Shown one piece after another: positions 17,221-64,000 of a stretch of DNA of 64,000 bases. Both the position numbers and the translations under genes were made by a program. Under the pieces are notes generated by a model. That model worked only from the letters and a program-made list of their open reading frames with translations, did not search any database and had not been told where the DNA came from. Location: assembly GCA_029891385.1 (NCBI GenBank), contig CM057230.1, forward strand, positions 31,885,402 through 31,949,401. Reading direction: 5' to 3'. Every line of letters begins with the position of its first letter. The stretch's first letter is position 1. Origin of the DNA: Erythroxylum novogranatense. Lineage: Eukaryota > Streptophyta > Magnoliopsida > Malpighiales > Erythroxylaceae.

Positions 17221-20200
17221 TGTTAGGACCCGATTTCGGAATCGGATCCCAACCGGAAAACGGAAACAGATACGAAGAACGAGGCGAATTCAAATTAGAT
17301 AACTTGAATTTGATAACGACAAACAAAGCGAAAGCGGAAGCAAAGCGAATGCAAATTGAATACAGAATCAAAAGAAGCAAATCGAATCGAATTTAATCTG
17401 GCGAAACTAATAAGCTTAAACGAAATCAAATTAAACCAAAAGTAGCGAAGCGGATCGAATACAAATCGAAAGCGGAAGCAAACACTTATGCAAAGCGGAA
17501 CCGACATCCGAGAACAATAACCGAAGAAAAATGATCGCGCTGGAAACCCTAGAAAACAAAATCGGAAAGAACGGAGTTCTTAATGAATTCGAAGCGGAAC
17601 GAAACGGAAGCAAATAAATCGGCACGCGAAAACCAACTATCGGACACGGAATTCAAGTTCCGAAACAAAAACATAAAGCAACAACGGATCCGACATCCGA
17701 ACACAATTATGAAACAACTATACGAGACGCGTTGGAAATATAGACTAAGACATTCCAAAACCGGTATATTTTTTTTTCTTTTCATTCCTTTTTTTGTTAC
17801 TCAATCACATACAAATCATAATCAATCCATACAATTTCCTTCCTGAAAATTTATCCTCATGCAAATCTCTAAATCTGTTCATATTCTTATTTCTCCATAC
17901 AAATCGTAAATTACAATTTTATTCTAATTTTTTATCGAAATTTTGGCAGCATAACGGCTGCATTTATCCTAACCCAAACCTGCAAAGTATTCAAAAATAC
18001 ACTTCTAAAAGCTCAATCAATCACACAATCATCAAAAATCAACCGGACCCTCCGTCTGGGATCTCAGCAGAATAGACCCACTCCTATATCTAAGTACAAC
18101 TCAATCTATCTCAATCCACAACCAACAGAAATTATGCTTCAATACAATATATAAATCCGTAACGTAATCCGAATACAACTCAAACGCAATTATAACCAAT
18201 TCCCTAACTCATCCCCCCAATTATATACAAACTTCATAACTCAGATACATATATGACAATTTAAGCCATATCCAATCTTAATTTACACAAAAGCCAAATG
18301 ATACAAAATCGAATCGAATGTCTTGATACTCTTTCATCCGATCTCCTGCACGAAACCTGGAGATGGGGATGAAAGGGGGGTGAGCTACATAAGCTCGTGG
18401 ATGACACATTTATAAATTGACCAATAAGCATAAATCATTTTTCATAAGCTTTTTGCCAATAGGGCTAATTTTTTTCAAACTTTGAAACTTTTCAAACCAT
18501 TTCCACCAGCTTTTCAATTTTTCGAACTTTTCATATAAATCTCACCTTTTTATTTCTCAATTTTGAACATGAATGCAGCACACAAAAACAAATCAAAAAT
18601 ACATAACATATCAAAATGGTTTGGTTTGGTCCAAGCGAGCGTCTTGCCATAATCGCATAGCGGTCCATGCAAAAGTGAATGTAACGTACTACACTTTCCC
18701 GCAAAGCAGTCCAATGTAGCCGTGAAGGGAGTCCGAAATCGGAGCTCTGTGCCACTAGCGGGCAGCCGGGAGAAGGCTATACGAATAGAGACAGTGCACT
18801 GACTCACAGAAGGACCTAACCGAACCCACATAACACGTAAGCCAAAACGGAGATTCGAATTGCCCGAAGGCACTTTTCAAAATCTTGTCTTTCTAACTTT
18901 ATTTCATTGAACTTAAACAAACTCGCAATTCACACATATCATACAAGTCAAGAAATTTAATCAATCAATAATTTCAACAATTTGCACAATTTATCAATGC
19001 ATACACAACCAATGCAGTTTCAGAAATTCTAGAGATTTAGCAAATCATTTGGAACAATGCATTTAAGCTTGCAATAATTTTTCAGAAATCATTCGGAAAT
19101 CATAATTTCAAACTTTTAGTCAATTCTTATTTTCAAACATTTACAAAACAATAATTTATCACAAATCCAAACCTTTGCTTTCTTTCATTTTTGAAAATTT
19201 GAATATTGCCTATAAATCAAAATATAAATATGCTACCCACCTCGAAATGATGCTAGGAACTCGTCCCGATCATCAATTTGATCCTTGCTTCTTTCATTCT
19301 TTCAATTAAAATTGACCTAAGCCACAATCATTCAAATTCCACATCATAATTTGCATAATTCTCAAAATTAACAATCGGAAATTCATAATCATCATATTTT
19401 CAAGCTTTCTAAAACCAGAATTTCTAAAATCCCCAATTTCAAAATTTGACCTAAACCAATACACTCAAATTCAATCTCATAAATAACTTAATTTTCAAAA
19501 TTAATGTCACAATTCATCAATTCACACTAATTCCAAAATATCTAAAACCTCAATTTCAAAAATCTCCAAATCTTAAAATTGGCCTAAACCAATTTATCCA
19601 AATTCAATACCATAAAATACAATTTCTTCAAAATTAACTTCATATTCCACAAACCCATATCATTATCTATAATTCTACACCAAAATTTCACAAAATTCTT
19701 AATCACAAAATTAAGCCTAAACCAATCCAATCAAATTCGATATCACCTTACCTATACCTTAACTAAACCATTAACATCAAAACTCATCCACATAACCCAT
19801 AAAATTCGAAAATCTCCCCCACATCTATGAAACCCACGAAAACAAAATTTTCACTTAGCTTCCAAAGCTCTTCTTTTCCTTGTTCTTTCATAAATACCTC
19901 TTCAAATCACCATGTTTAAGCAAGAAAGGGAAAACCCCAATAAGAAAACCAAGAAAATTCCGAAATCCCTAACCCACGAAAATCAGATTTTCTTCTCTTC
20001 CATGAAAACTCAACCCTTTTCTTTTCTTATTCAATCTCAACTCAAGAACTCTTCTAGTCACCCTTAGTAAGCATGAAAGACAAGAATCTACCCATAAATC
20101 CAAGAAATTTCGAAACCCTTACCTTGAAGAATGAGACCCACGAAATCTTCTTCTTCCCCTTTGTTCTTCTTCCTCTTCTTTGCTCTTGGAACCAACGAAA

Positions 20201-21847
20201 ATCACTCTGAAATCCATAGAAAAACCGACCTTCATGCTTGATCCATCTCCTCCACCATGGCCGACCACCTTCCTCTCCCTCCCTTCTTTTCATTTTCGTA
20301 TCCTTTCTTCTCTTTTCTTTCTATTTCCTCTCCTATTATTCTGCTAATAGTCGACAGCTCCAGCCTCCAAAACGACCATCCCTCTTGAGTTTAAGCCATG
20401 TTACTTAAGTTAGGGTAAAAAGACCAAAATGCCCCTCACTTGTTTGCTTATTTCCAAAATTGCCCCTGCAGGAACTTGAAAAACTGATACCTTGTGATCT
20501 GATTTCAAGCATCTAAACGAAATAATTTGGACAAACTTTCTTCTTAAAAATTGTTCCTATAGATCATACGAATCCAACGCCACTGACCGCGCTCAATTCG
20601 GATCTAAAACGAAGAAGTTATAGCTAAAATACTATCGAACCTTCACAAAATCCGAGACTGAACATTACGCGAATTAAATTCCAGAAATTAACAATCTTAG
20701 GGATGAATTCAAATTTCGATCCCTACATAAGAGTTGTATCCCTATATCTTAACTTTATTTTCCCTCAAGAATCAACTCAATCGGAGTTGTATAGCTCCCG
20801 AATTTCGCAAAATACCGAACCATGATCAGAAAATTTTCCAACTTATAACCTATAACCAAATCTCTTACTTTGGTTCAATCAATCTCTTTTCATTTAATCT
20901 CCTAAAAATCATAATTCTTCATAAAAAATGAACGTAATTGTCTTAGAAATCCAACGCTTCGAGAATCAAATCAATCGGATGTCGGACGAAGGAATTATAA
21001 GCAAAAGATTACGAAAGGATCGGATAAAGAAACAAAGTAACGAACGTCAAACTGAACTTTTCCAAAATCATATCTCTCGATCCCAAACTCGGAATTTGAC
21101 AAATTTAGTGTCAATAAAAAGATCAAAGGAATCTCTACATCTTCCCTGAAGAACTCAAAATCGAAAAAGGTCTCAAAAGAGGTCAAAACCTCAATCAAAG
21201 ATTCTGTCCCAAAACAGCTTTTCCTAAACAACTTCTAATTTTTAATCGCTCATAACTCCTAGCCCCGATATCGAAAAATTGCAAACTTCATATCAATGGA
21301 AAGATAAAAATATCATCTAAAACTTTCATGAAGACCACTTACTCTAATTCAAACTAGATCCATACGACGAGTGGCCTCAAAGCATAGAATACACAAATCT
21401 ATACTTAATAGCATAGCATTTTCAAAACAAAGCATATCTTCAGAAATTCATATCTCTCAATCCCGACGTCGAAAAATAGCAAACTTTATGTCCACAAAAA
21501 TCTCTCGACAGAGGCTACAAGTTTCATGTTGATCATTTTCTCGAATTTGACCTAAATCAAAAAGTCAACTTTTATCTCCAAAAGTCAAACTTTCTAAATT
21601 CTTCAAATTTTCACACTTTTTCTTTTTAATTCTTGCTATTTAACTTCATTTCAGTCAACTCATCCACTTTCTTCTCATAATCCATACCAGTCCACTCAAA
21701 ACCCCAAAGATATCAAAATCAAATCATTTCTTTTCTTCTCAATATTCTTTCAATTTTAAGTCATATATTATAAAATATATACACAAAGCACTCCTTAAAT
21801 TTCATTTTTCATAATTCAAATTTTCACTCAAAGATCGGGGTCCAACA
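17221..21847 (-). mobile_element. Giant solo LTR, copy 2 (4,627 bp), inserted in copia-2 RNase H
   Basis: Plus-strand ends TGTTAGGACCCGAT... and ...ATCGGGGTCCAACA, with 5-bp target duplication ATATC (17216-17220) on the left. On the right unit A has ATATT (21848-21852), but the duplicated copy B still has ATATC (45334-45338), which supports the duplication. Same family as 7740-12402. Orientation (minus) is inferred by analogy with copy 1, which has a primer-binding site. No internal region remains, so this is a solo LTR. Its 3' plus-strand half is repeated at 43190-45333 because the segmental duplication begins inside it at 19707. Confidence 0.82.
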
Positions 21848-22740
21848 ATATTTCTATCAAAGTTGCTATCACAATATCTTATAAGCTTGAAATTATTGGA
21901 GGAAGCATAAAATAATTCGCACTCCATATTAACTTTCAAGTATCAAAGTATTCTTTTTGTCATTTTCATGTGAGTTGTTATAGGAACTTCCATAAAATGA
22001 CTCAGTACTCCATCAACATCAAGAATATCAGATGTCATGCATGTCAAGCACCTCAAACTTCCCACAAGGCTTTTGAATAAAGTGGGATCTTCAATTTTGC
22101 CTTCTTTGAACTTTGATAATTTAATTCCACACTCTATGGGCATGTTCACGAGGTTACAATCAAACATGATAAACTTCTTCAATACTTTTTTCGCATATCC
22201 TTATTAAGAGATAAAAATTCCTTCCTCTATTTGCTTTACTTCTAAGCCGAAATAGTAGGATATTAGTCTTATGTCGATCATCTCAAACTTATGAGACATG
22301 TCCTATTTGAACTCTTCAAACAATCTCAATTTGTTATCGGTAAAGATGAGATCGTCCACATAAAGGAAAACTAGCAATATGTCTCCATTATCATAGGCTT
22401 TCACATAGAGAACATACTCATTAAGGCAATGAACAAATCTATGTTCTTGAAAGTTCTTGCCAACGCGATTATTCCATGCCCTTGGTGCTTGCTTTAATAC
22501 ATATAATGTCTTCTTCAACTTCAAGACTTAGTCTTCATGCCCTTTGACCACATATCTACATGATTGTTTAATGTACACTTCTTCTTTAAGATAACCATTT
22601 AGAAATGTCAACTTTACATCTAGTTGATAGATTCTTCATTTCATTTGAGCCGCCATTGAGATAAGCAGTCGAATAGTCTCCATGCTAGCAAATAGGGTAA
22701 ACACCTCATCATAGTCAATGCCAAACCTTTTCTTGTAGTG
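21848..22740 (-). pseudogene. copia-2 reverse transcriptase fragment (unit A)
   Basis: Minus strand: FGIDYDEVF near the truncation, [55 protein letters not shown] (22524 on), ILLVFLYVDDLIF with the YVDD active site, then (22182-21943) VLKKFIMFDCNLVNMP-like, LFKSLVGSLRCLTCMTSDIL, and RYCDSNFDRNI at the LTR edge. Several stops (for example near 22302 and 22535). It is non-functional. Confidence 0.87.
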
Positions 22741-22862
22741 TTGGGCCCCGAACTTTTTATATATATATTATTTATCTATTCTTTATTTTGCTTTATTTTT
22801 TTTTATTATTTTTAGTTGAGTCTTTAGCATAAAATGAAAAGATTCAAGCTTAAAATGAGAAG

Positions 22863-23185
22863 ATTCAAGCTCAGGATGCAACTATTGAGAAGCAAACCTT
22901 AGAAATGAAACAAATTTCAGTTGTTTTTGCACATTTGGCAAATACTGGAGTAATTCCTACTTTGTTACTCAATTCTTCTGCCTTAATTGAAGATCCATCA
23001 AGTGCCACAACATCAAATACCCCAACTACTCATGTAAGTTTATAAATTTATAAAATCTATAATAGTTAGTATCATTTCTTATCATTATCATTATATTATT
23101 ATAAATGTTAGTACTAAATTTATAGCTTAATATTTTATAAACCGATCAACTAATTTTTTTTTTGTAGGAAACAAATCAACAGTGA
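22863..23185 (+). pseudogene. CACTA transposase C-terminal exons (remnant)
   Basis: An open frame of 57 codons (22863-23033; AQDATIEKQTLEMKQISVVF then ANTGVIPTLLLNSSALIED) ends at a GTAAGT donor. An acceptor TTTGTAG at 23167 leads to a short last exon ending in TGA at 23185. The amphipathic Q/E-rich helix and position just before the 3' terminus fit the end of a plant En/Spm-type transposase, but the match is short and this is inference. The catalytic part is absent. Confidence 0.45.
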
Positions 23186-23869
23186 ACTTTATCCTGAAGA
23201 ATAGCTAAGAAATTTTACCTTAGAGAGTTTTAGCTTAATGTACATAGTAGTTTGAGACAATTGTAATAAATAATTTTCTTGGATATTAAAATGTCCAATT
23301 TAATATATTGAAATTGGAATTTTATACATTCGGTAATTTTATATATTTTATATATACTAATAATTTTATTTGCTTGTCGATAATATCTTGGCACTAAAAT
23401 CCGTATCATTTGTGACAAGTTCTATTTTATGGCCACCAATGCAAAAATTTGTATCGATTAAATAATTAAATTTAATAATATTATTTATGACAAACACGAA
23501 CACATTAGTGATAAATTTATTGTAACATATATTATGTATTTAGTGACAACATTATTGTAATATATAACTTTCATACTGTGACGAAAACTTTTACACAATA
23601 TAGACATTGATGCAAATTTCTTTTACAACTAATGTAATTAGATGATGAATTGATAGTTTCATTTGTGATAATAATAAACATAGTTAGTAACAATACTTTT
23701 GTACAAACCAATTTTCATTTTGTGACGAAATAATATTGACACTATTTTATTAAAATATTAGTGACCAAGAAGCAATGGACACCGATAAAAAATATTTAGT
23801 GACAAATACTTTGTCAAGATTTATAATTATTTTAGTGGTGATAATGTTGTAATAATAAAATAAAATAAT

Positions 23870-24320
23870 GTTACGACTTTATTCTTCACTACTTTATATT
23901 ATTTGTGTCAACAAACTTATCATAAATATATGAAATTGCTGTGATCATATAGTGTTGTCACATATTCCATATGTTTTAGTTTCGAAACTTTTGTCATAAT
24001 ATAATAAAGAATTGTTACAACTTTATTTTTCACTATTTTACATTAATTGTGTCCAAAACCTTGTCATAAATAAATACAGTTGTTGTGATCATATAGTGTT
24101 ATCACACATTTAATAGGTTTTGGTGTCGACAATTTTATCACAATAAAATGAAGTATTGTTATGACTTAACTCGTCACTATTTTATATTATTTGTGACGAT
24201 AAACTTACCATAAATATTTAAAGTTATTGTGACCATATAGCTTTGTCACGCATTTAACAAGTCTTAGTGTTAGTATTAGTGTCACAAAAGTTTTGCATAA
24301 TTGTGACCATTGTTTAAATT
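23870..24320. repeat. About 144-bp subterminal repeats of the CACTA element (three units), unit A
   Basis: A diverged unit of about 144 bp recurs three times. The marker TTATATTATTTGTG or its variant is at 23894, 24037 and 24182, each followed by an AGTTGTTGTGATCATATAGT-like word and GTTGTCACA or variant. The flanking 23500-23870 has further GTGACAA/GTCAC words. The region is noncoding. Confidence 0.75.
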
Positions 24321-24446
24321 AGTCACAATTTTAGTAGTGACGAAGGTATTTGTGACGGAGGTGATTTAATTCAAATATTAAACACTATTAATAATAGTGG
24401 CAAATATTCGCTTATAGTGACAACTTTCACTTTCACTAAAATACAA

Positions 24447-24458
24447 TTTCTTATAGTG
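24447..24458 (-). repeat. CACTA terminal inverted repeat, right end (unit A)
   Basis: Minus strand CACTATAAGAAA at the outer edge. The same terminus ends at 47945 in unit B. Confidence 0.75.
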
Positions 24459-26680
24459 AGTTATCTCTCAATTTTCAATGAAATTTGTTATTAAATCTCA
24501 ATGTCATTTATAAAATTTTCATTATCATTTGATGATTAATTCTACTATCATTTATCATTTGTCTTGTCACTTGGTATTTTTCTAGTCCAAAATTACCCAA
24601 ATTTTCATAAATTTCTTAAATTTCACCAAAATTCAAAATCAATGCATATACTTTCCAAATCAATTTTCAACACATAAAATCACAATTCTCAATATAATCA
24701 CATTTATAACTTAATTATACTCGAAAATGTCCATGAATCCATGTGCAATCATTTTAATGTGCAACAATTTAATATTCAAGTGTATGTGTAAATTATAATA
24801 TCCATGAACATGAAATGCGTTTTCTAATTTCTCAATAACTCTCATAGTTACTATTTTAGCCTTAAAATGGATAACGGGATGTTATATTAACATTCAAAGA
24901 AATGATAAACATCAGGAAGGGAGAGAAGTTTTATAGCTCTTAACCCTATTATCCTATTAGACTTTCTTATAATAGCAACTTTGAATTCGCTACCTATATT
25001 GCAATCTTCTTCTTGCTCAATAAGAACATACATTAACATTAGGGCTTGACTGACAACAGAGTTTGATGAATTCTCATCCTTATTTATCACAGCCTGCTCT
25101 TCATTAGTAGAATGAGATTATCCTTCTATTTTTGATTCTATCATTTTAGTACAAATATCATCTTTGTTGTTAAAGCAATAGTTTCTGGGCCTTGTATTTG
25201 ATGGGCTTGATTATGAGTAAGCATGTGGCCTGAGGTTTCTGCTTCTCTAAACAATTCCATATTTAATAATTCATGATTGTCACTTCTTTGAAACTTTTTA
25301 CTTTTTGATAGCCATTTTTAACTTGAATTATGTAACTAAAGCCTCTATTGACAAGTCATTATAACTAGTCCTCAACTAAATTGACATCTTTTTTTAGCCT
25401 TATAAAATGGATGATATCTGGTAGCTCAAGTAATGTGCTTCTACTTCAAGCACTCCAATTAATTATCTGACTTCTATTTTTAAAGAAAAAGGTTTGATAT
25501 TGTAGTACTAAGAAGCTACTTCTAAAATATTCTAAGCACTTAGATTAAGATTCGAATTTAGAGAAGAAGGGATTATCTTTATTAATCAAAACTTCTCTTA
25601 GCCCCTGTTCTTCCGATGATAATGAGCTCATTTGCTCAGTAACAAAAATGTAGATCGTTTATCGATAAAGAAATTTACTAATGTCAATTGCCATTGTCAA
25701 GCTCCTTCCCTTATTTTAGATTAAGCTAATAAACTCATAAAATTATGTAAACTCTTTGATCTTTATTTCTTTTTTGTTTAAGTCAATAAACTAAAATTAA
25801 TATTTTGAATATAATTGTTTTAAGTCTAAATGTTCAAATATTCTATAAATTGAATTTCAACAAGTTTTTAAATTTAAGAATATTATTGAGAAATCAAAAC
25901 GTTGTCCACAATAACATCTTAAAATCAAAGTAATTAAACACATTTTCTTTCTATTACGACTAATTAATTAAAATTAATTAAAAATAATTTCAATATTATG
26001 TACCATCTCTAATAATATGTGTATATATATTGATATATGAAAATATTTGAGTCGTGTGTACTATTTGTAATAACTATTTTAAATTATTTATATTATATGT
26101 TTGATAAGAATTATTGCAAAACTAAATTTAAAATACAGTATTGATTTTATTCTAAATATAATTATTTTAATATTAAAATTTTAATTGAATATAACAAAAT
26201 ATTATAAAATATCAAATAAAGCTAATAAAATTAAAATATGAACTTATATATATATATATATAGACACACACTAGCATATGATGAATGGGGTCTATTTATA
26301 TGACGAATAGGATCTAAAAGTATATAAATCTTCGAGAAGATTCACAACTAGAAAAACAAAGATGTCTTAAAAATAGGTTCAAATTTGAAGGCTATATCAA
26401 AAAGGTTCAAACGATACTGTTTCATGAAATAGGTAACCTAATTCGATATAAATAATAATTTTCGAGTATGAAAATATACAACACACTCACACAAAAAAGT
26501 AATAATACATCATATTTTATAATTTATTTTAAATGTTAAGAGCTTTAATTATTTAACTAAAATAGAAAATCATGATAAATATTGGATTCAAATTTAACAA
26601 TTCCCTAAAATAATAAGAATTAAAGTATGTTAGCTTCGTAAAGTTCATTCATTTCAAATATCTTGGTAGTAAATAAAACA
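24459..26680. other. AT-rich intergenic DNA with unrecognised degenerate coding-like stretch
   Basis: No gene recognised. A minus-strand open stretch at 24887-25090 and neighbouring frames to about 25700 have a codon-like look but match no family I know. Unit B has a deletion of about 24 bases inside it, so it is not conserved as a gene. 25900-26280 is very AT-rich, with a TA run just before ACACACAC at about 26250-26270. Confidence 0.6.
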
Positions 26681-29640
26681 CCACCTAATCTTTGATTTCA
26701 CAAACAAAAGGCGAGAGTCATGTAATGCGGTATTGATGACCATGCTAACATGGCGTACTTAATGAGGTGTGGTGTGGGTTTCTTGGGAAATGCCTAATTG
26801 CGTTACCATCACGCTTCTGGGTGCGTTGAATATGCCTCCACTGTCCACTCCAAAGCACAACGTGTCTTCCTCTTTTCTATTGGCACGTTAAATTGACCTT
26901 AAGCCTAATGTCTTCTAGTTGATGCATGCCTTTCCCAGATTTTAGTTACCCAAATTCTGGTCAATAATGGCTCATAAATATATTTGTTTATTACATATGG
27001 GTTCCATTGTTTCTCAATCTAGCTGTTCACACGCTTTACTGAATTGTTTTATGAGGCATATAAACAAAGCAATTATGATGTTTTCAATTTAAGTATATAA
27101 TATTGAATTATTCTTAATAGATTTATGTTGTTTTATACTGGCAAAGCTTGGCTTGTGTCTTCCCAATTAACTAGCAAGTTGTTTAATGTTTAGTCAATTG
27201 TGTTGTGCTCAGGTTAAAAAGAAAGTTTCTTCTAATTTCACTTCACTCCAAAATCGGGAATCCTTACCAGTCTTCTTTCCACGTAGCTGTTAGAATTTGG
27301 TTTCCTTATATCTTAGACAATATTGTAGTTTTAATTAGAATGAAATTAATATATATTTTCATTAAGAAAATAATAATTCCTAAGGTGGCTAAACAACTTT
27401 ATGATATCTTATCAACAGTTATCATTATTGGTTGAATCTATTGTCAGCCAGTCATAATACTTCTCCTATTATGCTTTTAGGAATATGTACAAGTAATTAA
27501 AAAAAAAGAAAAGAGCAAAGTCTAAATCACTTATCCCAATTATTGGAACCCAAAGAGAAGACATGGAATTATGGACACACGAAATTAATGTGAAAACAAC
27601 TCTAATAAATGTCAAGAATTGAAAAATCAAAACGGCCACCCTCCGCCAATTTCCTTCACATAAGTTTGTAAAATTAATCTGAACCAATCTTCAATCTAGA
27701 TGGCATTGACTCTAAGCAGCGGGATCCCCATCATTTGATAGCTCTTGTATACTATTCCTCCTCCTCACTTAATCACCTAGTATTGGCACTTGATTACATA
27801 GTATTGGCCTGGGTTGTATGTCTTTATAATAAATCCGGACACCGTGGACCTTCGCGACTCGTCGTTTTGCTTACCCGCCAAACACTGATGGACCCGACGT
27901 CGGTACGCAGCCACCCCTTCTCATTGCATATTATCTGCTCGTAGTAAATACTAATACAATTTTGATAAGTTATATTTCTTGACATTTTGGCAACAAACTC
28001 TCTTCTTTCCTTATGTTACCATGATTCTGGTGGCGTATATGAAATCAATGAATCGTGGGATGATTATTTAATACACAAACAATAATAGAAGGAAAAGAAG
28101 AGGGTTGGTTCAATAATATATAAATATAAAGGAATCTTGAATAGGACCTATCTATAATTGAAACGTCTAAGCAAAACTTAATTTGGATTTAGACAATTGA
28201 TATGGAGACAATGTAATTAATTTAACTTATGAAAATGAAATAGGAAATAAAAAGATAATGTTCAAGGAAATAACGTGCAAGAAGTTGTAAAAGCGGCAAA
28301 AGCATCTTAGGGACCAAACAAAAACCACCGTTGAACACGTTGTTAATTTTGTATTTATCAATTATTAGTAAATGGCCCATAAGGGAAAATCAAATCCAAA
28401 AGACAACATGAGGCGTAGATGGTGACTTTAACTTTGGAATATTAGCTTGAAGGAATTTTATTTAAAATAAATAGTTAATATTCTTAAAATTTTATTAATA
28501 TATTTAAAATACTAATCACAGTATCTATTCTTTGTACCATCTGTCTATTTTGTAAAATTTGGGACTACAATGTTAAACTTTATTAGTAAACATAAAGTTT
28601 CAGCCTTTTAATTATCCATTAAGGCTATAGAGACAAATACAATGTTCACAGTTTTGTAAATTAATATTGATATTAAGTTAATTCTATATAAAATATTTTT
28701 ATCCTTAAATAACAAGTAAATGAGATGGAGTTATTAGACTTTGTTGAATATACAGTAATAGTGAATGTTGAAAGTTAATATCTCTCTGTAGCCTTAGTAT
28801 GAAAATGTTTAAAATACTCCTATCTACTTGTACTAAGACTATATAAGTATATTTTAAAATTTTTATTTTGTGTTTTCTCGATGGCTTTAATGAACTTGAG
28901 AGAGGAATATCATGTTACTCGTTCTAATTATTGATAAAGTTGGCGTTTTGTGTTTTAAGAGTTTTTAAAAGTTGTCAAAATTTCATTACTATTTATGTAA
29001 ATTTAAACCTTGTAAAGAGATTTATTTTTAAGAATATTGATATTATTATTAGAATTTAAATTTATTCTATTTTCCAAAATTTTGAATTAATTTCGTGATA
29101 ATTAAATAATAAATTGAAATTTTATTGATTTAATTAAATAAGAAATTCACTATATCAATGAAAATTTGTCTGTCTTTAAGTTTAAGTGGCAGATACTAGA
29201 AATTTAAAATAAAACATGAAATTGAAAGCGGCTCTCATCGCCACTTTTCTCAGCCACCATCCTCTCCTCGATGTCTCCACCGTTTTAAATAATCTAATTA
29301 ACAGTGTCATTATTCATTAATTTTAATTTGATTTTTTTCCATGGAAAAAGCAAAACCCACGAAAAAGTATTTGAAGTTTAAGAGGTTTCATTATATAATG
29401 ATATATTTAAATAAGATTTAAAACATCGAAGAGCATTGGAGGATGAAATAAATAGAAATCGGTTTGCGTAACCACTAGCAGTGGGCAGTCTAAGACTACT
29501 ACGCTCCTTAACCTCCGCCACCCACCATCACCACCACCACCACTGCCAATCGCCACCACTACCCTAATCATTTTGTCTGTTTGTTAGTTTGTTTATTTTG
29601 TGTATAATAATTTTGATTCGCGTTTTATTCCAATCAAAAT
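26681..29640. other. Intergenic region upstream of the SBP1-like gene, no gene seen
   Basis: Composition is mixed, less repetitive than the flanks. Short frames on both strands (for example 27205-27435 plus, 27469-27687 minus) are equal in both units only because of the duplication and resemble no known protein. A moderately GC-rich island at 26700-26900 and another at 27820-27910 could be regulatory or old exon remnants. The proximal promoter of the SBP1-like gene is expected at the right end of this stretch. Confidence 0.5.
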
Positions 29641-30625
29641 TCAATTATTTCTTAGTTTTTTTTCTTTCTTTCTCCAACCTCTCTCTCTCTCCCCTTATCT
29701 AAGCCATCAGACTATGTCCCCATTCTTCTTCTTCCTTCACTGTTCTTGAATTATCCTTCTTTCTCTTTATTGGGTTTTCATTTTCCTTTTCTGGGTATTT
29801 CTTGTTACTGGGTTTTGGGGGGTTGGGTTCCAGATCGTGGATGATCATTTTGTTCTCCATGTTGAGAAAGATGCGATCTTTGAGGTATTTGTTTTGAGGT
29901 TTGGTGATATTATGATCGGGTTTGATTCCAGGCATTTTTCGGTTTTGTTTTGTTTTTTTTTTCCTTCTGATTTTTGAGGTTGATGTTGCGATTGCAGGAT
30001 CTAAGGGCACTGTCTTTGCTTGAAGAGGAATCTGATACTGAAGTAATTTTCTCACCTGTAGTCCGTGCAAGATAATCTTTTTTTTGTTTGATTTTTTCGG
30101 ATTTTCCGTTTCTGGGCGTGAACGTGCGCTTTGTGTGCTAATTTGTTTTTATTTGAACTTTCAGCTTGTGTGTTCATATGGTTCTTGATGAGGATCTAAA
30201 CCTTGAGATATGCTGTTGGATTTTCCTTTGCATTGTTGTTTAGGCTTCAACTTTAAAAATAAAAATTAAAAATCCCCCTTTTCAAGTTTTTGTTTAACTG
30301 CTTTTCTTGTTCTCCTGTTAGCATTCACCCATATTATTTTCTTTTTAGCACCCATCTATGTTATATTTCCATCCTTTTATTTCGGTTAAGGAAATAATAC
30401 TACCATCTTCTTTAATAGGTTTTGCTTACTAGGTCTGCTGTTGTTTTGATGATTGCATTAAACAAATTTGGAAGCCTGTACTATGATCATATCATTATCA
30501 TGTTCCCTGGATTTTGCAGTTTTTGAATCTGTATGTAGATCGATCAATTCAGTAGTCTGCTCTTTATGCTATTGATTGATCTGTTTGCTTTTTAGTTTGG
30601 ACTTTTTGATGGAGTATAGTCTTAG

Positions 30626-30731
30626 CTTCTTTGTTGCACATGACTTTTCAATGAGTTGTTATGATCTTGATAGACCTTCTTCTTTGCTGCACATGACTTT
30701 TCAATGAGTTGTTATGATCTTGATAGACCTT
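30626..30731. repeat. 53-bp tandem duplication in SBP1-like leader intron (unit A)
   Basis: 30626-30678 and 30679-30731 are direct copies (one difference, TTGTTGC versus TTGCTGC). Also present in unit B at about 54105-54210, so it predates the large duplication. Confidence 0.92.
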
Positions 30732-53118: not shown

Positions 53119-54104
53119 TTCAATTATTTCTTAGTTTTTTTTCTTTCTTTCTCCAACCTCTCTCTCTCTCCCCTTATCTAAGCCATCAGACTATGTCCCC
53201 ATTCTTCTTCTTCCTTCACTGTTCTTGAATTATCCTTCTTTCTCTTTATTGGGTTTTCATTTTCCTTTTCTGGGTATTTCTTGTTACTGGGTTTTGGGGG
53301 GTTGGGTTCCAGATCGTGGATGATCATTTTGTTCTCCATGTTGAGAAAGATGCGATCTTTGAGGTATTTGTTTTGAGGTTTGGTGATATTATGATCGGGT
53401 TTGATTCCAGGCATTTTTCGGTTTTGTTTTGTTTTTTTTTTCCTTCTGATTTTTGAGGTTGACGTTGCGATTGCAGGATCTAAGGGCACTGTCTTTGCTT
53501 GAAGAGGAATCTGATACTGAAGTAATTTTCTCACCTGTAGTCCGTGCAAGATAATCTTTTTTTTGTTTGATTTTTTCGGATTTTCCGTTTCTGGGCGTGA
53601 ACGTGCGCTTTGTGTGCTAATTTGTTTTTATTTGAACTTTCAGCTTGTGTGTTCATATGGTTCTTGATGAGGATCTAAACCTTGAGATATGCTGTTGGAT
53701 TTTCCTTTGCATTGTTGTTTAGGCTTCAACTTTAAAAATAAAAATTAAAAATCCCCCTTTTCAAGTTTTTGTTTAACTGCTTTTCTTATTCTCCTGTTAG
53801 CATTCACCCATATTATTTTCTTTTTAGCACCCATCTATGTTATATTTCCATCCTTTTATTTCGGTTAAGGAAATAATACTACCATCTTCTTTAATAGGTT
53901 TTGCTTACTAGGTCTGCTGTTGTTTTGATGATTGCATTAAACAAATTTGGAAGCCTGTACTATGATCATATCATTATCATGTTCCCTGGATTTTGCAGTT
54001 TTTGAATCTGTATGTAGATCGATCAATTCAGTAGTCTGCTCTTTATGCTATTGATTGATCTGTTTGCTTTTTAGTTTGGACTTTTTGATGGAGTATAGTC
54101 TTAG

Positions 54105-54210
54105 CTTCTTTGTTGCACATGACTTTTCAATGAGTTGTTATGATCTTGATAGACCTTCTTCTTTGCTGCACATGACTTTTCAATGAGTTGTTATGATCTT
54201 GATAGACCTT
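54105..54210. repeat. 53-bp tandem duplication, unit B
   Basis: Counterpart of 30626-30731. Confidence 0.9.
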
Positions 54211-54353
54211 TGGCTTGATGATTGTAGTCATTTTAACTAGTTAACATTGTTCTTTGAAGTAGGTCCGAAGTAGTGGATGGTTGCGTCTTTGTGAAGCTGC
54301 ATACACACACACACACATATATATATAGAACCTCATACAATGCAGTGCAAGGT

Positions 54354-54461
54354 CATGCATATTTTAGATACTAACCATGGAACTTCTGAGATAGTCAGTA
54401 AAACTATCATGCATATTATAGATACTAACCATGGAATTTTTGAGATCATCAGTAAAACTAT
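54354..54461. repeat. 54-bp tandem duplication, unit B
   Basis: Counterpart of 30875-30982. Confidence 0.9.
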
Positions 54462-55017
54462 GTGTAAAGAAGGGTTTAAAGTAATCTCTCTGAAAGATTT
54501 AATCGACTGATCTTATACTGTTGCTTGAATTTCTTATAAAACGTCTGGAAAACAGTTGACCTGTTAATTTTGTTTTAGTAATGACGTGTTTTCATGCTTG
54601 GTTGCAAGCTTGATATAAGCTTTATTTACAATGTCCTTTTATAATATTCCTTTAATGACTTCATCATTAAGTTAAAATTTGTTACTTAGTGCGTTTGACG
54701 ATTACACCCAAAAAAAGTTGGAAGTTCTATATTTGCTGTTGTACGTGGACATTGCTACGTGCGTCAGGTATAGGCATTTTCTTGAAGACATTATGACTAT
54801 TTCAAGTGTTCTGATTGTTCCTTTTTAGGTTAATCTTCAGTTATGTTCTAGGACATGTGGATTGCATTTTCTAATGCATCAAATGTAACCATTGCTTTTG
54901 TAGGAACTTATTTGTCCATTTTTGTGATTGTTTTTCCTTCTTTTGCAGGTAGGAAAGTACTGTACTGTACCTTTTTGTGAACCGGTATAGTTTATCATAG
55001 ATTAAGAATCTAGGAGA

Positions 55018-58000
55018 ATGTTGGGAGGTAACAACAATAATCCTCTGCTTCCTGCTTTCGTGGATGAGAATCGTATTCCTTATCAGGCTAATACTTCAAA
55101 TCAACTCCAGTTATTTGGGAATTGTGAGTTCTCAAGTCATTTAGAATCTATTTGGATTTTGGATTTAAAATGGAGTTTCAATTCTAGTGTATAAAAATAC
55201 TGTAAATTGTAGTGAAAATTGAGTTATTTGGACTTTTAGTTATCCATGTTAAATTTGGATTTCTAACAAAAGCTACAACATTTGAATTCCTTTTAATTAG
55301 ATGAGGAACTGGAATTACCGTTTGCTGTGACAAAGAAACAACAAAATAGAAATTAGGGCCTGGAATTAATGTGGCCAATCCCAATTCCAAGCATCCTAAG
55401 GGAAACATTAATGGACAATGTAAAACTTAATCACCATGCTTGGCTCCTGGTATATTGTTTCTACAATGTTGCATAGTTTTCATACTTGTATGATGTTATA
55501 GCTGATTTTCCTTTATGGACATTTATCTGTGGTATCTTTGTAGCTGCTGGTGGGACTGTTTTCTCCTTGTGATACGATGTAGAGATTTGCCAATGAACAC
55601 TGAAATGTTGGCGATAGCGTGATAATATGACACCTGTAATCATTCATAATTAATGAATATCTATGGCTGAAAATCTGAAAACTTCTAAACCAGGTACGGA
55701 AATAGACCTTTTTGGCAGCCACTGTATGTCCGGAAATCTCAGCATCCAAGTCATGTAAATGTTGAAATAAAAAAAGTGAGTTGATGAATATTCTTTTGGT
55801 TGAAGAAGAACAAATACTAGAATTTCCGAACAAGATTAGGAATATAGCCAAGCTTGGTAGTGGAACCTTGTGGCCATAATGGGGGCATTAGGAGTTGAAA
55901 TATAGCAAGTAAACTTGGACCATTAGCAGAAAAGTATTTAAGGACTTTACATTATCCAAACAATGGAAAAGGAAAATATAGGAGAAGTTGTGAGGGATGA
56001 GAGATACAGTGAGATTTCTATTAACATCCAATGGAAAAGGAAAATATAGGAGAAGTTGTGAGGGATGAGAGATACAGTGAGATTTCTATTAACATCCATT
56101 CCTACTCTTTGTGACAAAAAGTGAAATTTACTGGGAAGTGTTGTGGTGTTTCTGAAGTTGCCATTGGGTCTTTTACTAATAGATAAACGGATATGTTCAT
56201 TGGCCAACCAGCATGACCTAAACTATGAATACTTTTCATTGTGGCATATCATGAGAAACTCTATATGAATGTCCTTGCAGGCTTTTATCTTGGTTGTCCT
56301 TTTCTTCTGAGTGAAAGGAAATGTATGTCAACATCTGAAAGAAACTTCAATGATTGATTCGAGGATGATCCCGAATCATATCATTGGTTACAATAATAAG
56401 AAGGTCGTCAGGAGTTGTAAAAACTTGACATGCCCATGGGACAGCTAGGATTATAATAAAGAAAATCCTTATCTATTAATTTTGCTAGTTCTTATTTTCT
56501 GTATACAATAGTTTCCTATTTCAATTTTCAATTAGTGTGGAAACTGTCCTCTGTCCGTCCTAAATCACTACATTTCATTATGTTGGTTATCCTTTGCTTA
56601 GACCTTTCTGGGGGGACTGGAATCAGTCATATGATATCTAGATTATAAATGAGAAGAGGCAAGGTTGATAAGTGTGTCTTTCTTGTTTGTTGAAATGATG
56701 AATCTGATCTATTTTTCCTGTGCATTAATTGGTATCCATGCTAGTGCATTATTCCTAGTATTCCCATGTTGCAATTGGATTTTATAATAGTTGTCTTCAG
56801 GGAACAAGCATAGAGTAGTTAACAAATTATGAAACAAGTTCAAAGAAAGCCGATCGTATCAATTGTATGATGAAGGAAATCACCGAGGTAGTTTGACTGA
56901 TCTTTGTTTTACTTGTTTGTACCAGTGCCAGCTGGATGTAGCATTAACCCAGTGAATTATTTTGGAAATGAAAGTGTTAATCCCATGCTTCGACCAAACA
57001 AACGAGGCAGGGAATCAGAAGAATTTGGTAGACAACAAAAGCTGCAGATGTCCTTAAATTTTGAAGTTTGTCAAGATGATGCAGACCGTTCAGTGAGCAT
57101 CCCAAATCCGAACCCTGTCTCAACTGGTTTAAGACTATCATATGATGAGCGCAATTCGTCTGTAACATCTGCTAGTGGAAGTATGTCAACAACACCGTCA
57201 TTTGTCTTGTCCCTTGGTGACAATATAAGGACCAAGCTTGATCGGCAGAAAGAAGAATTTGATCAGTATATCAAGATCCAGGTTCTTATTTAACTTGTTT
57301 ACCTCATTTTTATGATTTAGGGTGAACAACTAAAACGGTTTATGCATGCTTTTACATTTTTCACTACATATGAAAACCTGAACTATTCAACTATCATGAA
57401 AGTGCATGAATTTCCAAACAAAAGTTAGAGATTGTGATAATACTCTGGATGAGTGTAATTTATCTGCAATATAAAAGTGGTCTAGCATTACAACCTATCC
57501 TCATGCTCTGACGGATGTTTGCTACACATTCAGGAAGAGCACTTGGCCAAGGGGCTAAGGGAAATGAAGCAGAGGCATGTTACTTCCTTTCTTGCTGCCA
57601 TTGAGAAGAGTGTCAACAAGAAGTTGCAGGAAAAAGACGTTGAGATAGAGAGCATGAACCGTAGAAACAAAGAATTGGCAGAGAAAATAAAGCAGGTGGC
57701 TGCAGAGGCTCAGAACTGGCACTACAGAGCAAAGTACAATGAGTCTGTGGTTAATGCGTTGAGGACCAATCTCCAGCAGGCAATTTCACAGGTCGCTGAC
57801 CATGGGAAGGAAGGGTTTGGTGACAGTGAAGTTGATGATGCCGCCTCATACATGGATCCTAACCATTACTTGAACTATCCTGGAGGGCCTGCAAAGCCTC
57901 TCTCGAGGAATTACCAAGGCTTGAAGGAACATATGAGCTGCAGGGCATGCAAAGCAAGGGAAGTATCCATGCTGTTAATGCCCTGTAGACATCTCTGTTT

Positions 58001-58085
58001 ATGTAAAGAGTGTGACATACTAATCCACATTTGTCCTGTCTGTCAGATGGTCAAAACAACCAGCGTCGAAGTGTACTTATCATAA
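55018..58085 (+). CDS. SBP1: SBP1/BOI-type RING-finger E3 ubiquitin ligase, unit B
   Basis: Coding exons 55018-55123, 56926-57281 and 57534-58085, with the same exon lengths (106, 356, 552) and splice sites as unit A. The 337-residue protein is identical by eye. The only coding difference noticed is TTG to TTA in the third-last codon including the stop (Leu, synonymous). The C3HC4 RING (C290 to C324) and coiled coil are intact. Intron 1 differs by several 1-base homopolymer changes (for example around 56330-56510). If the duplication is real, both copies could be expressed and double the dose of the ligase. If it is an assembly artefact, this is the other allele. Confidence 0.88.
55961..56096. 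repeat. 68-bp tandem duplication in SBP1-like intron 1, unit B
   Basis: Counterpart of 32479-32614, again perfect. Confidence 0.93.
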
Positions 58086-59316
58086 GTTATGAAGTAAATC
58101 TCTGAAAGATGCATACAATTCTCCATGTAAGGTAAAATACTTCAAAACAGTTCTTTTCAAGAACTTGAGCTGTATGAGGCGTAATACTTGAACTTCGTCA
58201 AATGAAGTTTGTCTGCTTCTGTGTAATTATATTTTCAATATGTTCTTGATTGATTTTCCCCCTTAGGTATCTCGCAAGGGATGATATCGGCTATATCCCC
58301 TGACCTCCTCTTTGGGATAAAATAAATCCAATAGAATAGATTATTATTATTATAAAATTATTTTGGTTATATTTTATTATTATCTTAAAATGACTGTAAT
58401 ATTATGATAATTATATGGTATATAAAATTATGATTTTGGAAAATTTGTAAGAGAATTTACTTAATTGATCCTGAAGAGAGTTTGAGTGTCATAAAACTTT
58501 GAATCTTGATGCGGTTCAGCTTAATCGCCGGTACAATGCTAAGTGTAATACTAATTCTAGCACAATTAGAAAATAACTCGAGACACGAATGAAGCCTGCT
58601 ATTTACAAATTCCATTCTTCAGTTCCTAAAGATTAAACGGTTCAAGTATGCTCAAGGGGAAAAAAACAAGGAGAAAAAGTGAGAACATTTCCCTCTCTTC
58701 ATTCTCTTCGGTTTGCAGAACAGAAGGGCCACAACTCTCTTTTTCTTCATGTTCCTCTTTTTTTGCTTATTGATGAAGAAACCCAGATGAGATTCGTGGC
58801 CTCTCTTTTGGAGGGCATTGCAGCAACATGTTAATAAAAATTGGTCTCCGAGCTCCTATATATTTTTGTTGCTGTTTTGTATCCATATTGCTGGCGCATC
58901 TAAACCAAACTTTCTCAACTCTATAACACAAAAGCCAACCCTTTTCACCTTGAGGGCTTCCGTGCCATACGCTTGTCATTGAAGCAAGCTCTTCTCCTGT
59001 ATATATGGAAAGCACTCGGCACACTCACGTGCTGGACTGGTAATCTTTGCTGATATCAAAATTTTCTTCATGTTCTGGGATTGCTTAGCAATAATTGCCA
59101 CTGTTCTTTTGCGTTGTTCTTAATAGTTTGTCCAGCTATTTCTCGTCATTGTAGATATTGTTCAGGAGAGCTTTGAACAATATCTAAGGTAGAAATATGG
59201 TTTCTTGCATGCTATGGAGGCTTAACCGGAAAGAAACAATAACTACCTTTCCTGAGTCCTTGCTTGTTCGGTGACAAGTTCGCATCTTTAACAAATTCGG
59301 TGGATTTGCTTGAGTA
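58086..59316. other. Spacer between SBP1-like gene and PPR gene, unit B
   Basis: Copy of 34609-35835. Homopolymers at 58657-58680 and 58740-58765 are each one or two bases longer than in unit A, and these changes break the meaningless minus-strand frame that is open in A. No gene. Confidence 0.55.
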
Positions 59317-61299
59317 ATGCTAAGCTCAAAATTAGTGCCTTGTGTACGTACCATAACAAATTTAACACCCAGGCTAGTGCCTTTATCATCGTCAGCTTCC
59401 TCTCTTTTGTTGGATTCTTACTGTGAAACCAATATTCAAGATTTGGTTTATTCAAAGAATAGAGAACTAGACATCTTAATAAAATGTGGACGCATAAATA
59501 CGGCTTACGAGCTGTTCGACAAAATGCCTCTTCGTGATGTTGTATCTTTTAACTTGTTGATTTCTGGTTATAGGAAGCAGGGAGCTTCTGAAAAGGGTCT
59601 TTTCGTTTATTGGGAATTGGTTTCGCAAGGTTTCAGAGAAAACCCGTCAACGTTTTCTTCTGTTTTGGGTATTTGTAGTGACGCTGGTCTTTTGGTAGAA
59701 GGGATTCAAGCGCAATGCAGGGTTTTGAAACTGGGGTTGAGTTCTAATTTATTTATTGGGAGTGCGCTCGTAGGATTTTACATGCGACTCGGACAGTATG
59801 ATTTGGCTATATGTCTGTTTGATGAATTGCCTCGGAGAAATCTAGGGGTGTGGAATCTTGTTTTAAGTGGGCATTCTAGATTAGGTGAGTTTGATGAGTT
59901 GTCAGGATTCTATCGACAAATGAAATTGGACGGAGTGGAGGCAAATGGGTTAACTTTTAGCTATTTGATGCGCGGATGTTGTAATGAGAAGTTTTTAAGT
60001 GAAGGGAAGCAGCTACACTGTCATGTGATTAAGGTTGGATTAGTAGAATCGAATGTTTTTGTTGCTAATGTTTTGGTGGACTTTTACTCTGCTTGTTCGT
60101 GCTTAAGCGATGCACGGAAATCATTTGAAGCCATTCAAATGGGAGATGTAATATCATGGAATTGATCGTGTCAATATATGCAGACAACGACTTATTAGTC
60201 GAGTCTCTGGAATTATTTCAGTTGATGCAGATATTTGGAAAAGGGCCATCCATCCGTTCTTTTGTAGGGTCTTGAATTTGTCAAGTAGGCTCGGGATGTT
60301 CTACTTGGACGTCAAATTCATTGTTGTGTTCTGAAAGTAGGTTTTGACTGTAGAAGTGTTCACGTACAGTCAGCACTAGTTGACATGTATGGTAAGTGCA
60401 AGGATATTGAGAGTTCAGTATCTGTGTACAAAAGTATTCCGGAGAGAAATTTGGAATGTTGTAATTCTCTAATGACCTCTTTGCTGCATGCTGGCATTGT
60501 GGAGGATGTGGTTGAGATGTTTGGCTTGATGGTTGATGAAGGTATTGGGCTTGACGAGGTTACACTTTCCACGACATTGGAAGCGTTATCAGAGTCAAGT
60601 TTAGCAAGCTTGGCCAGCTGCAGCCTGGTGCACTCTTGTGCAATAAAATCAGGCTTCGAAACTGACATCGCAGTGTCATGTTCTTTGATTGATTCTTATT
60701 TGAGGTCTGGTGATGTGAAGCTTTCACAACAGGTTTTTGATCAAATTCCTTCACCGAATGTAATCTGTTTCACATCAATGATCAAAGGATTTGCTCGAAA
60801 TGGAATGGGAAATGAATGTCTTAAGATGTTTGATACAATGATCCAGAATGGACTGAGTCCTGACAGAGTGACGTTCATGTGTGTTCTGACTGGATGCAGC
60901 CATTCGGGATTGGTTGAAGAAGGAAGATTGATTTTTAATTCAATGGAAGCCACGTTTGGGATTTCCCCAGACAGAGAGCACTTTTCCTGTATGGTGGATC
61001 TCTTAGGTCGTGCAGGTTTGCTGAACGAAGCTGAAGAGTTATTGCAGAAGGCGCTGAGAGGGGGTGATTGTGTGATGTGGGGCTCATTGCTGCGAAGCTG
61101 TAGAATCCACAGAAATGAAATCATAGGAAGAAGAGCTGCTGAAGCATTATTGGAGATTAATCCAAAACATTCTGCTGTGTATTTACAAATATCAAACTTT
61201 TTTGCTGAAATTGGGCAGTTTGAAGCCTCAATGCAGATTAGGGAGGTTGCCATGGCAAAGAAGATAACAGCAGAGATTGGTTGCAGTTTGTTGAGGTGA
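59317..61299 (+). pseudogene. PPR protein gene, unit B, interrupted by three 1-base deletions
   Basis: Copy of the 661-aa PPR gene. Open for 282 codons (59317-60165), ending in TGA where unit A reads GAATTCGATC and unit B GAATTGATC. Two more single-base losses follow: GGGG to GGG at about 60267-60269 and CGGGGATG to CGGGATG at about 60293-60295. The three losses sum to three bases, so the original frame resumes and stays open to 61299 (304 codons from the ATG at 60385). CGA to AGA near 60350 is synonymous. As written it encodes only a truncated protein with no E domain. The clustering and the net of three suggest sequencing error as an alternative to true decay. Confidence 0.85.
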
Positions 61300-63006
61300 A
61301 GCACTGACAATGAGATACGAATTATGTTGAAAGTTGAGTTCCAATTACCCGCAAGAGTGAAACCTGTAATGGCCAACAAAATTTTCAATTTGATCGGATG
61401 AAGATTTTGAAATTCTTGCGAGGTCTTCAATAGCCAGAGATTTCTTTTGCTGGAAGAATTCAGTGTGTGTGACAGACAACTGGGGCCTTAATTTTGTTGC
61501 TCCGTTGGGTTGAACAATGCAATTTGTATCATTCTTTGCAGGATTTTGCATTGCAGCTGCTGTTAAATACTGTGTATATTAGAGGGTGAGTCTTCAAATA
61601 ATTCGTAAGATTATTCTTTTATGATCTGAAGGTGAAGAGTTTGAGTCAAGAAAATAGTCTTTTTTTTAACATGCAAAAGAAAAGTTACGTATAATTAATG
61701 ACCTTCTTCCGACCTTTGTAAAGTGAGGAGTTTTGTGCACTGAAGTTTGCCTCCTTTTTGCCATTTTCAACTGTATGGTAATTTCTTTCGTTTCACTTGG
61801 ACTGATGACAGTAGGCAGATGCAGAATTCATGAACTCTTATGGTGGGGAACTTCTTTCAATTGGTCCAAGAGTAAAGCAAAGAACTTGAGGTGAAGAATC
61901 CCTTTTCACTTTAAGCCTGGGCATGTATAAAATGGTGTTTATTCTTTTTTCTGTCCTGATAAGCCAAGCTGAATAATCAACAAAACTCTTCATTTCCATC
62001 TTTAATCTGCAGATACAAATAATGAACTCTTGTTTGCAGGAGTTTCACGAGGTTGAAAAGTTCTGCTAGAGAGACAAAACAGACAAATCATGAGCAGTTT
62101 GTTCACCATTTCCTTTCTTAGTATGTTGGAAATGGCCAATGCAGTTGTAGGAAATATTGCGCACTATGATATCAACATGTTTGAGGAGCTTGAGAGATTC
62201 GACATAGAAGATGAAAGGCAGTTGGAAGTTCGAAAATTGCAGTGTTGAAAAAGTGAACGTAGCACCAAAGCTCTCTGTATTCTGACATATTCTGGTTCAT
62301 ATTTGATCTCTAAAGCTGATTCGGAGTCTTCGGTATCAAAACAGTTAAATGATTGAGCTTCATAGAGCGATAACTCTGGGACCATGCAATACTTGTTTTG
62401 TGAGTTGATTCACTGATGCATATTTTTCTTTGCAGGCACTGACTCTTGATTCAAGTTAGCTGTAAAGGGGAACGACTTCCCATCCAAAACAGTCACAATG
62501 CACTGTATGATTTCCAAGTGCGATTCAGTGGGAATAACTCAAATGCTAGTTTCGGCTTTGGAGGATTGTCTAATACTGATGTAATCCATGTCACTTAATC
62601 AACTAATGCTGCTCTACATGACTACAAAATAGGAAGGGACTCTCTGTGTCAGTTCTCTTCCTGGTTCTCTAGCCCAAATGATAGGAACTACAATGGAACA
62701 TAGCCAGTAAACTACATTCTTAAGCATTTCTTCTTCCAATTCACTTAAAATTAGACCTAGGATGGGGGAAATGTTAAAGAGAAACATGAGAACGCTAATT
62801 CTAGAAACTAATAGTAAACCACAAGCATCCCAGGTTAACCTTGTTTCATGATAATTCCACGATTTTATAATAATCTGCTAACGGACCAACGGATTCCTAG
62901 GATGATACTTGGGAATTCAGGTGATGATTGCACCTCCATTGTTTAAGTACCTAGAGTATTAAGACGAGAGAATATTCTGCAGACCATGCCATGGAATCGG
63001 GTATAC
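61300..63006. other. Downstream region of PPR copy, unit B
   Basis: Copy of 37822-39526, with the same acceptor-like sites and no recognised gene. Confidence 0.5.
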
Positions 63007-64000
63007 CAATATTTTAAAAATCAAATCGGTTAAAGGAAATGTTTAAGATTTAGAGGTTTAACTGATAGTGAATCATTATAAAATTGGTATATAATAAATA
63101 AAAAGTAAAACTTATAAGAAAAAGTAAAAATAAAATATTTTTTTGAAATAAAAATACATCAATGTCTATTATTATATAATGAATTAATAACAAATAAATA
63201 TGAGTATAATATAAATATTAAAATAATAATAAAAAAAATTAAAATTGTATTTCTGAAGGAGGTTGCTTCTCATCATCGTCAAAAATTTCAAAATCTCCAA
63301 TGCTATTTAAAGATTTGTAAACTATGCTTTCATTTAAAGTAATTGTATCAATTTCTTCAACTGCATTAAAATAAATTATAAATTAGTAATGTATGAAATT
63401 ATTCTCAATTGTAAATTTGCAATATAACATAATTTTAACTTAAATATGATCAAAATAAGATATGAACTAAACATCAGTAGATGTTCTTAATTTATTCATT
63501 GTGACAAATACATTTTATTCATAAAGCGTCTTTTTAAGTTCATTATAATCAAGATCAGGCGATGGTTCTTCTTCTTCGATTCAAAAATCAGTATGTTCAA
63601 TACAATCAATATCAACTGGATCATATGTTCTCTTCTTACTAAACAATCTGAATATATAATAAAAAATTATAAAATCAATAATAAAAATAAAATTATTGAA
63701 ATAAAAACAAACTATAAAATAGTAAAATATCTATTCTTCATTCTTAGATTATAAGTAACGTAAACAAGGTCATTAAGTCTTTGATGCTCTAAACGATTTC
63801 GTTTCTTTGTATGAATATGTTCAAAACCACTCCAATTATGTTCACAACCTGATGCAGAAATCGTTTGATTGAGTAACCTAATAGTGAGTTTTCTCAATAT
63901 TGGACCGCTGTCACCGAATAATCTCCATTACTCATTTGTATTTTAAATTAATAGTTATGATAATAATATATATTATTAATAAGTAAATAATGAATTAAAA
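63007..64000 (-). mobile_element. hAT transposon, unit B, cut by the window end
   Basis: Left terminus CAATATTTTAAAAATCAAA at 63007, then the transposase C-terminal exon-like piece (about 63260-63370) and the dimerisation domain (63897-63712). The remainder is outside the window. More small indels against unit A here than in the genes. Confidence 0.78.
63712..63897 (-). pseudogene. hAT transposase dimerisation domain (unit B)
   Basis: Minus strand LTIRLLNQTISASGCEHNWS, FEHIHTKKRNRLEHQRLNDL, one residue different from unit A (T for A at the third position). Part of a broken transposase. Confidence 0.82.

What the first reader, a model, noticed from the sequence alone, without database searches (positions are those of the whole stretch)
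19707..64000. A 23.5-kb head-to-tail duplication carries an SBP1-like E3 ligase and a PPR gene
Two adjacent units share order, orientation and near-identity over at least 20.8 kb. The left breakpoint lies inside a solo LTR and the right one in unassigned AT-rich DNA. Close tandem copies of a ligase family linked in Solanaceae to S-RNase binding, plus an organellar RNA factor, would be a recent copy-number change with possible dosage effect.
Basis: partly seen in the sequence, partly recalled or inferred. Interest (0 to 1): 0.75.

Follow-up and report, generated by a model that had tools for sequence, protein, structure and literature searches.

The report
23.5-kb tandem duplication in coca
A chromosome of the coca plant carries two back-to-back copies of a 23.5-kb stretch holding one ubiquitin-ligase gene and one organelle-RNA gene; it looks like an ordinary plant duplication, though a double-counted pair of parental chromosome copies is not excluded.

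Summary
The duplication is in the sequence and runs past the window. Unit A is 19707-43189; unit B is 43190 to about 66701; they are 98.95% identical over 23.58 kb. The plant is Erythroxylum novogranatense (coca), not a Solanaceae. The junction lies inside at least 324 kb without an N and has 4 bp of microhomology. The unit end was found at two places in the assembly (best 40 of 891 candidates scored). The copies do not differ evenly: edges by 10.8 and 12.6 SNPs per kb, a 13.9-kb core holding both genes by 0.51. One-base homopolymer indels are spread evenly and fall in one-sided blocks; I read them as consensus errors. Two of the three deletions that break the PPR gene in copy B are of this kind and the third is a similar one-base loss, so its 'pseudogene' state is probably technical. 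The RING protein is identical in both copies and belongs to the BOI-related family; an S-RNase role is unsupported. Best reading: a real tandem duplication whose copies carry allele-like differences, or whose core was later homogenised. Main rival: two alleles assembled in a row. Reads, not available here, would decide. Ordinary in kind.

The parts
19707..43189 (+). unit A of the tandem duplication (23,483 bp)
   Evidence: self-alignment
43190..64000 (+). unit B, the part inside the window; it ends at about window coordinate 66701 on the chromosome
43183..43200 (+). junction A-end/B-start; AAAA (43190-43193) is shared by the unit start and by the right flank after unit B (4-bp microhomology)
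   Evidence: chance of 4 bp or more about 2.3%
17221..21847 (-). LTR, probably solo, that holds the left breakpoint; five relatives elsewhere in the genome are 94.8-96.5% alike over 1.6 kb
25691..39580 (+). near-identical core of unit A against unit B: 7 SNPs in 13.65-13.9 kb, flanked by edges with 10.8 and 12.6 SNPs per kb
31537..34608 (+). BOI-related/SBP1-like RING gene, copy A; exons 31537-31642, 33450-33805, 34057-34608; 337 aa
55018..58085 (+). same RING gene, copy B; exons 55018-55123, 56926-57281, 57534-58085; protein identical to A, one synonymous SNP
35836..37821 (+). PPR gene with E motif, copy A, intact, 661 aa
59317..61299 (+). PPR gene, copy B; three one-base deletions (opposite A 36683, 36787, 36814) break the frame; the public model K2173_003273 bridges this with a 141-bp 'intron' 60148-60288
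40254..41638 (-). hAT transposase remnants (Dimer_Tnp_hAT 40254-40439 and DUF659 41186-41638) near the right end of unit A
22132..22785 (-). copia reverse-transcriptase remnant (RVT_2) just right of the LTR

Best explanation
A 23,483-bp stretch was duplicated once, head to tail, on one coca chromosome. The break inside an LTR (19707) was joined to the far end of the stretch with 4 bp of microhomology, as in end joining or template switching, not by recombination between long repeats. Shown: two copies, the junction, the microhomology, no gap, no BLAST homology between the DNA left of the two unit starts. Inferred: the copies differ in mosaic because the join happened between two different parental haplotypes and so captured allelic differences (edges 1.1-1.3%, core nearly identical), or because a longer-standing pair had its gene core homogenised later. 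Both RING copies encode the same protein. The PPR gene is intact in A; its three frame breaks in B are most likely consensus errors. Two functional copies of each gene would be the expected product; expression is untested.
For: No N in 324 kb around the junction. The 201-bp junction probe matches in full only at its own place; the unit-end part is found at 2 places, both on this chromosome, among 40 scored of 891 candidates. Microhomology 4 bp, chance about 2.3%. At 9 single-base SNPs of the left edge, five related LTRs make 5 derived in A, 3 in B, 1 undecided (8 further columns in an indel block, 7 of them scored derived in A and 1 in B, were left out because the aligner shifted bases there). 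With the more distant LTR 6 of 20 differences agree with A, 8 with B, 6 with neither. So neither copy is just an error-laden version of the other. Coding SNPs: 2 of 2 synonymous.
Against: The mosaic is also what two alleles of a heterozygous plant would show. Typical conversion tracts are hundreds of bp (PMC3924818, passages), so a 13.9-kb core needs an unusual event if conversion made it. No read depth, spanning reads or second accession was available. The direct search for further copies of the gene core never ran (tool busy, 13 tries).
Confidence: 0.62

Rival explanations
1. False heterotype duplication: the two haplotypes of one locus were assembled in a row; the plant has one unit per chromosome.
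For: Edge divergence of 1.1-1.3% beside a nearly identical 13.9-kb core is ordinary for two haplotypes. Such errors are the main class of false duplication in the assemblies studied in PMC9516828, which shows a gene duplicated next to itself in an older zebra finch assembly (outline and passages). Homopolymer errors of about 1.4 per kb per copy would fit split read depth, but similar rates occur at some other places of the same contig, so this is weak.
Against: That paper lists gaps between the copies as a hallmark; none here in 324 kb. A 4-bp microhomology at the join is expected by chance in only 2.3%.
Confidence: 0.33
2. Homotype false duplication: one sequence assembled twice, all differences being errors.
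For: Homopolymer indels behave as errors; the core has only 7 SNPs.
Against: Left-edge SNPs are derived in both copies against related LTRs, and there are 8-, 15- and 21-bp indels and multi-base changes.
Confidence: 0.04
3. The PPR copy in B is a real pseudogene made by three one-base deletions, leaving one working PPR gene. (This can hold with or without the duplication readings above.)
For: The frame is broken in the sequence, and one member of a duplicate pair often decays (general knowledge). One of the three deletions is not in a homopolymer.
Against: Two of the three are homopolymer length changes; all three are B-short and fall within 132 bp, like the one-sided blocks seen along the pair. 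The homopolymer indel rate does not follow the SNP rate. The gene's one SNP is synonymous.
Confidence: 0.15

Closest known systems
False heterotype duplication in genome assemblies (Ko et al. 2022, PMC9516828; outline, abstract and passages)
   Same: adjacent copies on one sequence, allele-like divergence, false gene gain possible
   Different: no gap at the junction, microhomology at the join; depth and k-mers not testable here
Arabidopsis halleri HMA4 tandem copies with ectopic gene conversion (PMC3749932; abstract and passages)
   Same: tandem plant gene copies whose gene parts are more alike than expected from the rest
   Different: three copies with population data and known selection there; here one assembly, and one long uniform core
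Kochia EPSPS tandem duplication (PMC6808082; listing and start of abstract only)
   Same: tandem gene copies in a plant
   Different: three to eight copies with a selected resistance trait there; two copies and no known trait here
BOI-related RING E3 ligases (BOI, BRG1-3; PMC11432932, passages)
   Same: C-terminal C3HC4 RING; relatives with BOI names are 65-78% alike over the RING-bearing exon
   Different: no function tested in Erythroxylum

Membership tests
tandem segmental duplication | two copies, same orientation, directly adjacent, highly alike | tested here: met
tandem segmental duplication | each copy at full read depth, junction spanned by reads | not testable with these tools
   no reads held
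false heterotype duplication | gap between the copies on the scaffold | tested here: not met
   no N in 324 kb
false heterotype duplication | half depth, haploid-specific k-mers | not testable with these tools
   no reads held
LTR-LTR unequal recombination | long homology at both ends of the unit | tested here: not met
   homology stops at 19707/43190 apart from 4 bp
BOI-related / SBP1-like RING ligase | C-terminal C3HC4 RING and full-length relatives so named | tested here: met
   PF13920 at 287-327 of 337 aa; names
S-RNase-binding function (SBP1 of gametophytic self-incompatibility) | binds S-RNase in a plant with S-RNase self-incompatibility | not testable with these tools
   host genus is mostly distylous; no S-RNase gene was searched for
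PLS-class PPR, E subgroup | PPR repeats and an E motif | tested here: met
   PF13041/PF01535, and PF20431 at 27.3 bits, equal to its cut-off; the P/L/S repeat pattern itself was not analysed
solo LTR | TG...CA ends, target-site duplication, no internal region | tested here: inconclusive
   ends met; flanks agree in 4 of 5 bases; no primer-binding motif beside it

The most novel reading that the evidence does not exclude
A real, older tandem pair whose transposon-rich edges have diverged by 1.1-1.3% while one long ectopic exchange, or a pair of unequal crossovers, reset a 13.9-kb core carrying both genes to near identity.
Probability: 0.2. Interest if true: 0.35.

Novelty: new member of a known kind. 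Interest (0 to 1): 0.18.

Why it matters
If real, coca has a two-copy block of a BOI-type ligase and an organelle RNA factor, with a clear junction usable as a PCR marker. If an artefact, K2173_003260/003273 and any gene-count claim built on them need care. Setting homopolymer indels against SNPs along a duplicate pair, and looking for one-sided blocks, helps to tell consensus error from true divergence without reads.

Tried and rejected
Recombination between two LTR copies as the cause: rejected, no BLAST homology left of 43190 to the DNA left of 19707. Homotype error-only duplication: rejected for the left edge by polarised SNPs. A templated repeat at the junction (an 8-mer repeated 12 bp apart): direct repeats of 8 bases or more occur in 4.0% of 20,000 random 40-bp places, so not counted as evidence. 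Other genes in unit A: six-frame Pfam of 21849-31530 and 37822-43189 gave only RVT_2, DUF659 and hAT dimer hits. Right of unit B up to window coordinate 74,000: only RT_RNaseH_2. RNase H remnant left of the LTR: suspected by eye, not found by Pfam. Tying the homopolymer errors to the duplication itself: not shown, since 5 of 13 control repeat pairs also exceed 2 per kb. The source genome paper is not held; its sequencing method is therefore unknown to me. Paper searches did not list it. find_trnas gave none, with bacterial settings.

Full report
What and where. The window is C7:31885402-31949401 of the held genome G000, 1.30 Gb in 267 sequences, on a sequence of 98,791,962 bases. The protein search found a public protein on a contig of that length, K2173_003273 of Erythroxylum novogranatense, matching copy B, and K2173_003260 matching the RING gene. 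So the plant is coca. A paper ties the species to assembly GCA_029891385.1 and Wang et al. 2023 (PMC13313602, passages). That K2173 is that assembly is my inference. The source paper was not readable.

The duplication. Window against itself: 19707-40509 with 43190-64000, 99.1%. With 60 kb of flank the match runs 19707-43193 with 43190-66705. Unit A is 23,483 bp. No N occurs from 20 kb left of the window to 240 kb right of it, 324 kb in all. Of the 22 self-matches of 1.5 kb or more listed there, it is the only one above 98%.

Junction. Left flank ...AATCAC|AAAATTAAGCC, unit end and right flank ...TTAGCCT|AAAAAGGACTC, junction ...TTAGCCT|AAAATTAAGCC: 4 bp shared. Of 200,000 random joins in the local 124 kb, 2.4% share 4 or more; the composition formula gives 2.3%. 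A 201-bp probe over the junction matches in full only at its own place; its unit-end part is found once more, at the end of unit B; its LTR part is found at many places; 40 of 891 candidates were scored. Long homology at both ends, as for LTR-LTR recombination, is absent.

Two kinds of difference. Over the full pair there are 120 SNPs and 91 indels, 67 of them homopolymer length changes. SNPs: 67 in 19707-25900 (10.8 per kb), 7 in 25901-39550 (0.51), 46 in 39551-43189 (12.6). Merged within 12 bp there are 75 SNP events, and a two-rate scan puts the core at 25691-39580, log-likelihood gain 41.3 against at most 9.1 in 200 simulations. Homopolymer indels: 2.58, 2.71 and 3.85 per kb in the same three parts, so they do not follow the SNPs (Fisher p 4e-14; share in the core not different from its length share, p 0.62). 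Their side, A short or B short, comes in blocks: 17 runs against 31.8 expected, p 6e-5 for all 67; 13 against 28.6, p 3e-5 for the 59 inside the window. In the one block where related LTRs can judge (A 21016-21048, three indels), all five relatives carry a base at each of the three gap columns, as B does, with mixed letters at one of them.

Controls for the indels. I compared 13 other repeat pairs on the same contig: seven and six more. These are all direct-orientation self-matches of at least 93% in the lists, apart from the duplication itself. Together they have 1,026 SNPs and 75 homopolymer indels; the highest single ratio is 12 to 63. The core of the duplication has 37 to 7. Per kb the pairs range from 0 to 4.8 homopolymer indels; 5 of 13 exceed 2 per kb. 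So the rate per kb at the duplication is not unusual for this contig; what is unusual is that it stays the same where SNPs nearly vanish. I read the homopolymer indels as consensus errors that occur in patches over the contig. A paper on bacterial assemblies says homopolymer-length errors are the commonest residual errors and tend to survive short-read polishing in repeats (PMC8812927, abstract). That the duplication caused them here is not shown.

Are the SNPs real? Five related LTRs make 5 single-base sites derived in A, 3 in B and 1 undecided, of 9, at the left edge. The raw tally of that call, with 8 columns of the indel block where the aligner shifted bases, was 12, 4 and 1 of 17. The more distant LTR gave 6 like A, 8 like B, 6 like neither, of 20. 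Both copies carry their own changes, as two alleles or two paralogues would.

Age. With a recalled rate of 7e-9 per site and generation (from no call), edges of about 1.15% mean some 0.8 million generations of separation and a core of 0.05% about 37,000. One single copying event of one sequence cannot give both. Either two haplotypes were joined, or the core was reset, or these are two alleles laid in a row by the assembler.

Genes. The RING gene has three exons and 337 aa; both copies give exactly K2173_003260, with one synonymous SNP. A second, 86% alike protein lies on a 78.9-Mb sequence. Of 120 listed relatives 41 carry a BOI name and 2 an S-ribonuclease-binding name (counted by hand, where names are cut short). 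The PPR gene of A is an intact 661-aa protein with an E motif; an organelle RNA-editing role is general knowledge of that class. Copy B lacks one base at three places within 132 bp. The public model hides this with a 141-bp intron. Two of the three are homopolymer shortenings and the third is a lone C. The gene's only SNP is synonymous.

Old neighbours. By equal contig length in the two lists of 120, the RING and PPR relatives share a sequence in 15 species besides coca, from Hevea and Turnera to Cucurbita and Macleaya; in six of these (Turnera, Ulmus, Craigia, Diplodiscus, Reevesia, Ancistrocladus) and in cacao the gene numbers are 2 to 4 steps apart (read by eye; the contig column is per cluster, and other listed species do not show it). 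So the pair is an old neighbourhood that was copied together.

Function claims. Most Erythroxylum species are distylous, and self-incompatibility is stronger in E. coca than in E. novogranatense (PMC6833119, passages). In apple SBP1 did not mediate S-RNase ubiquitination (PMC4071834, title, summary and outline). BOI acts on defence-related and other targets in Arabidopsis (PMC11432932, passages). A dosage effect remains a guess.

Verdict. A real two-copy tandem duplication joined by microhomology is favoured (0.62) over alleles assembled in a row (0.33). The kind is well known. Interest is low.

Noticed in passing
60148-60288: The public gene model K2173_003273 appears to use a false 141-bp intron to bridge frameshifts in copy B of the PPR gene.
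   Followed up: yes
7723-12402: A second LTR (7740-12402) of the same broad family, followed on the minus strand by a perfect 13-base tRNA-Met primer-binding motif at 7723 and then closely by integrase sequence: it looks like a copia element with a large internal deletion beside a truncated copia.
   Followed up: partly
6179-6398: Exact 110-bp tandem repeat inside decayed copia reverse-transcriptase sequence.
   Followed up: no
23830-24270 and 47316-47738: Three-copy array of a 142-144-bp unit in both duplication copies.
   Followed up: no
L003, L006, L008 and other places: Pieces identical or nearly so to the LTR at the breakpoint lie 2.6 to 5.7 kb apart in short rows on C4, C5 and C8, as if that LTR family forms arrays.
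   Followed up: no
window coordinates 220551-244242 (on L026-L029): Other patches with 3.4 to 4.8 homopolymer indels per kb on the same contig, seen in three repeat comparisons that share this stretch.
   Followed up: partly
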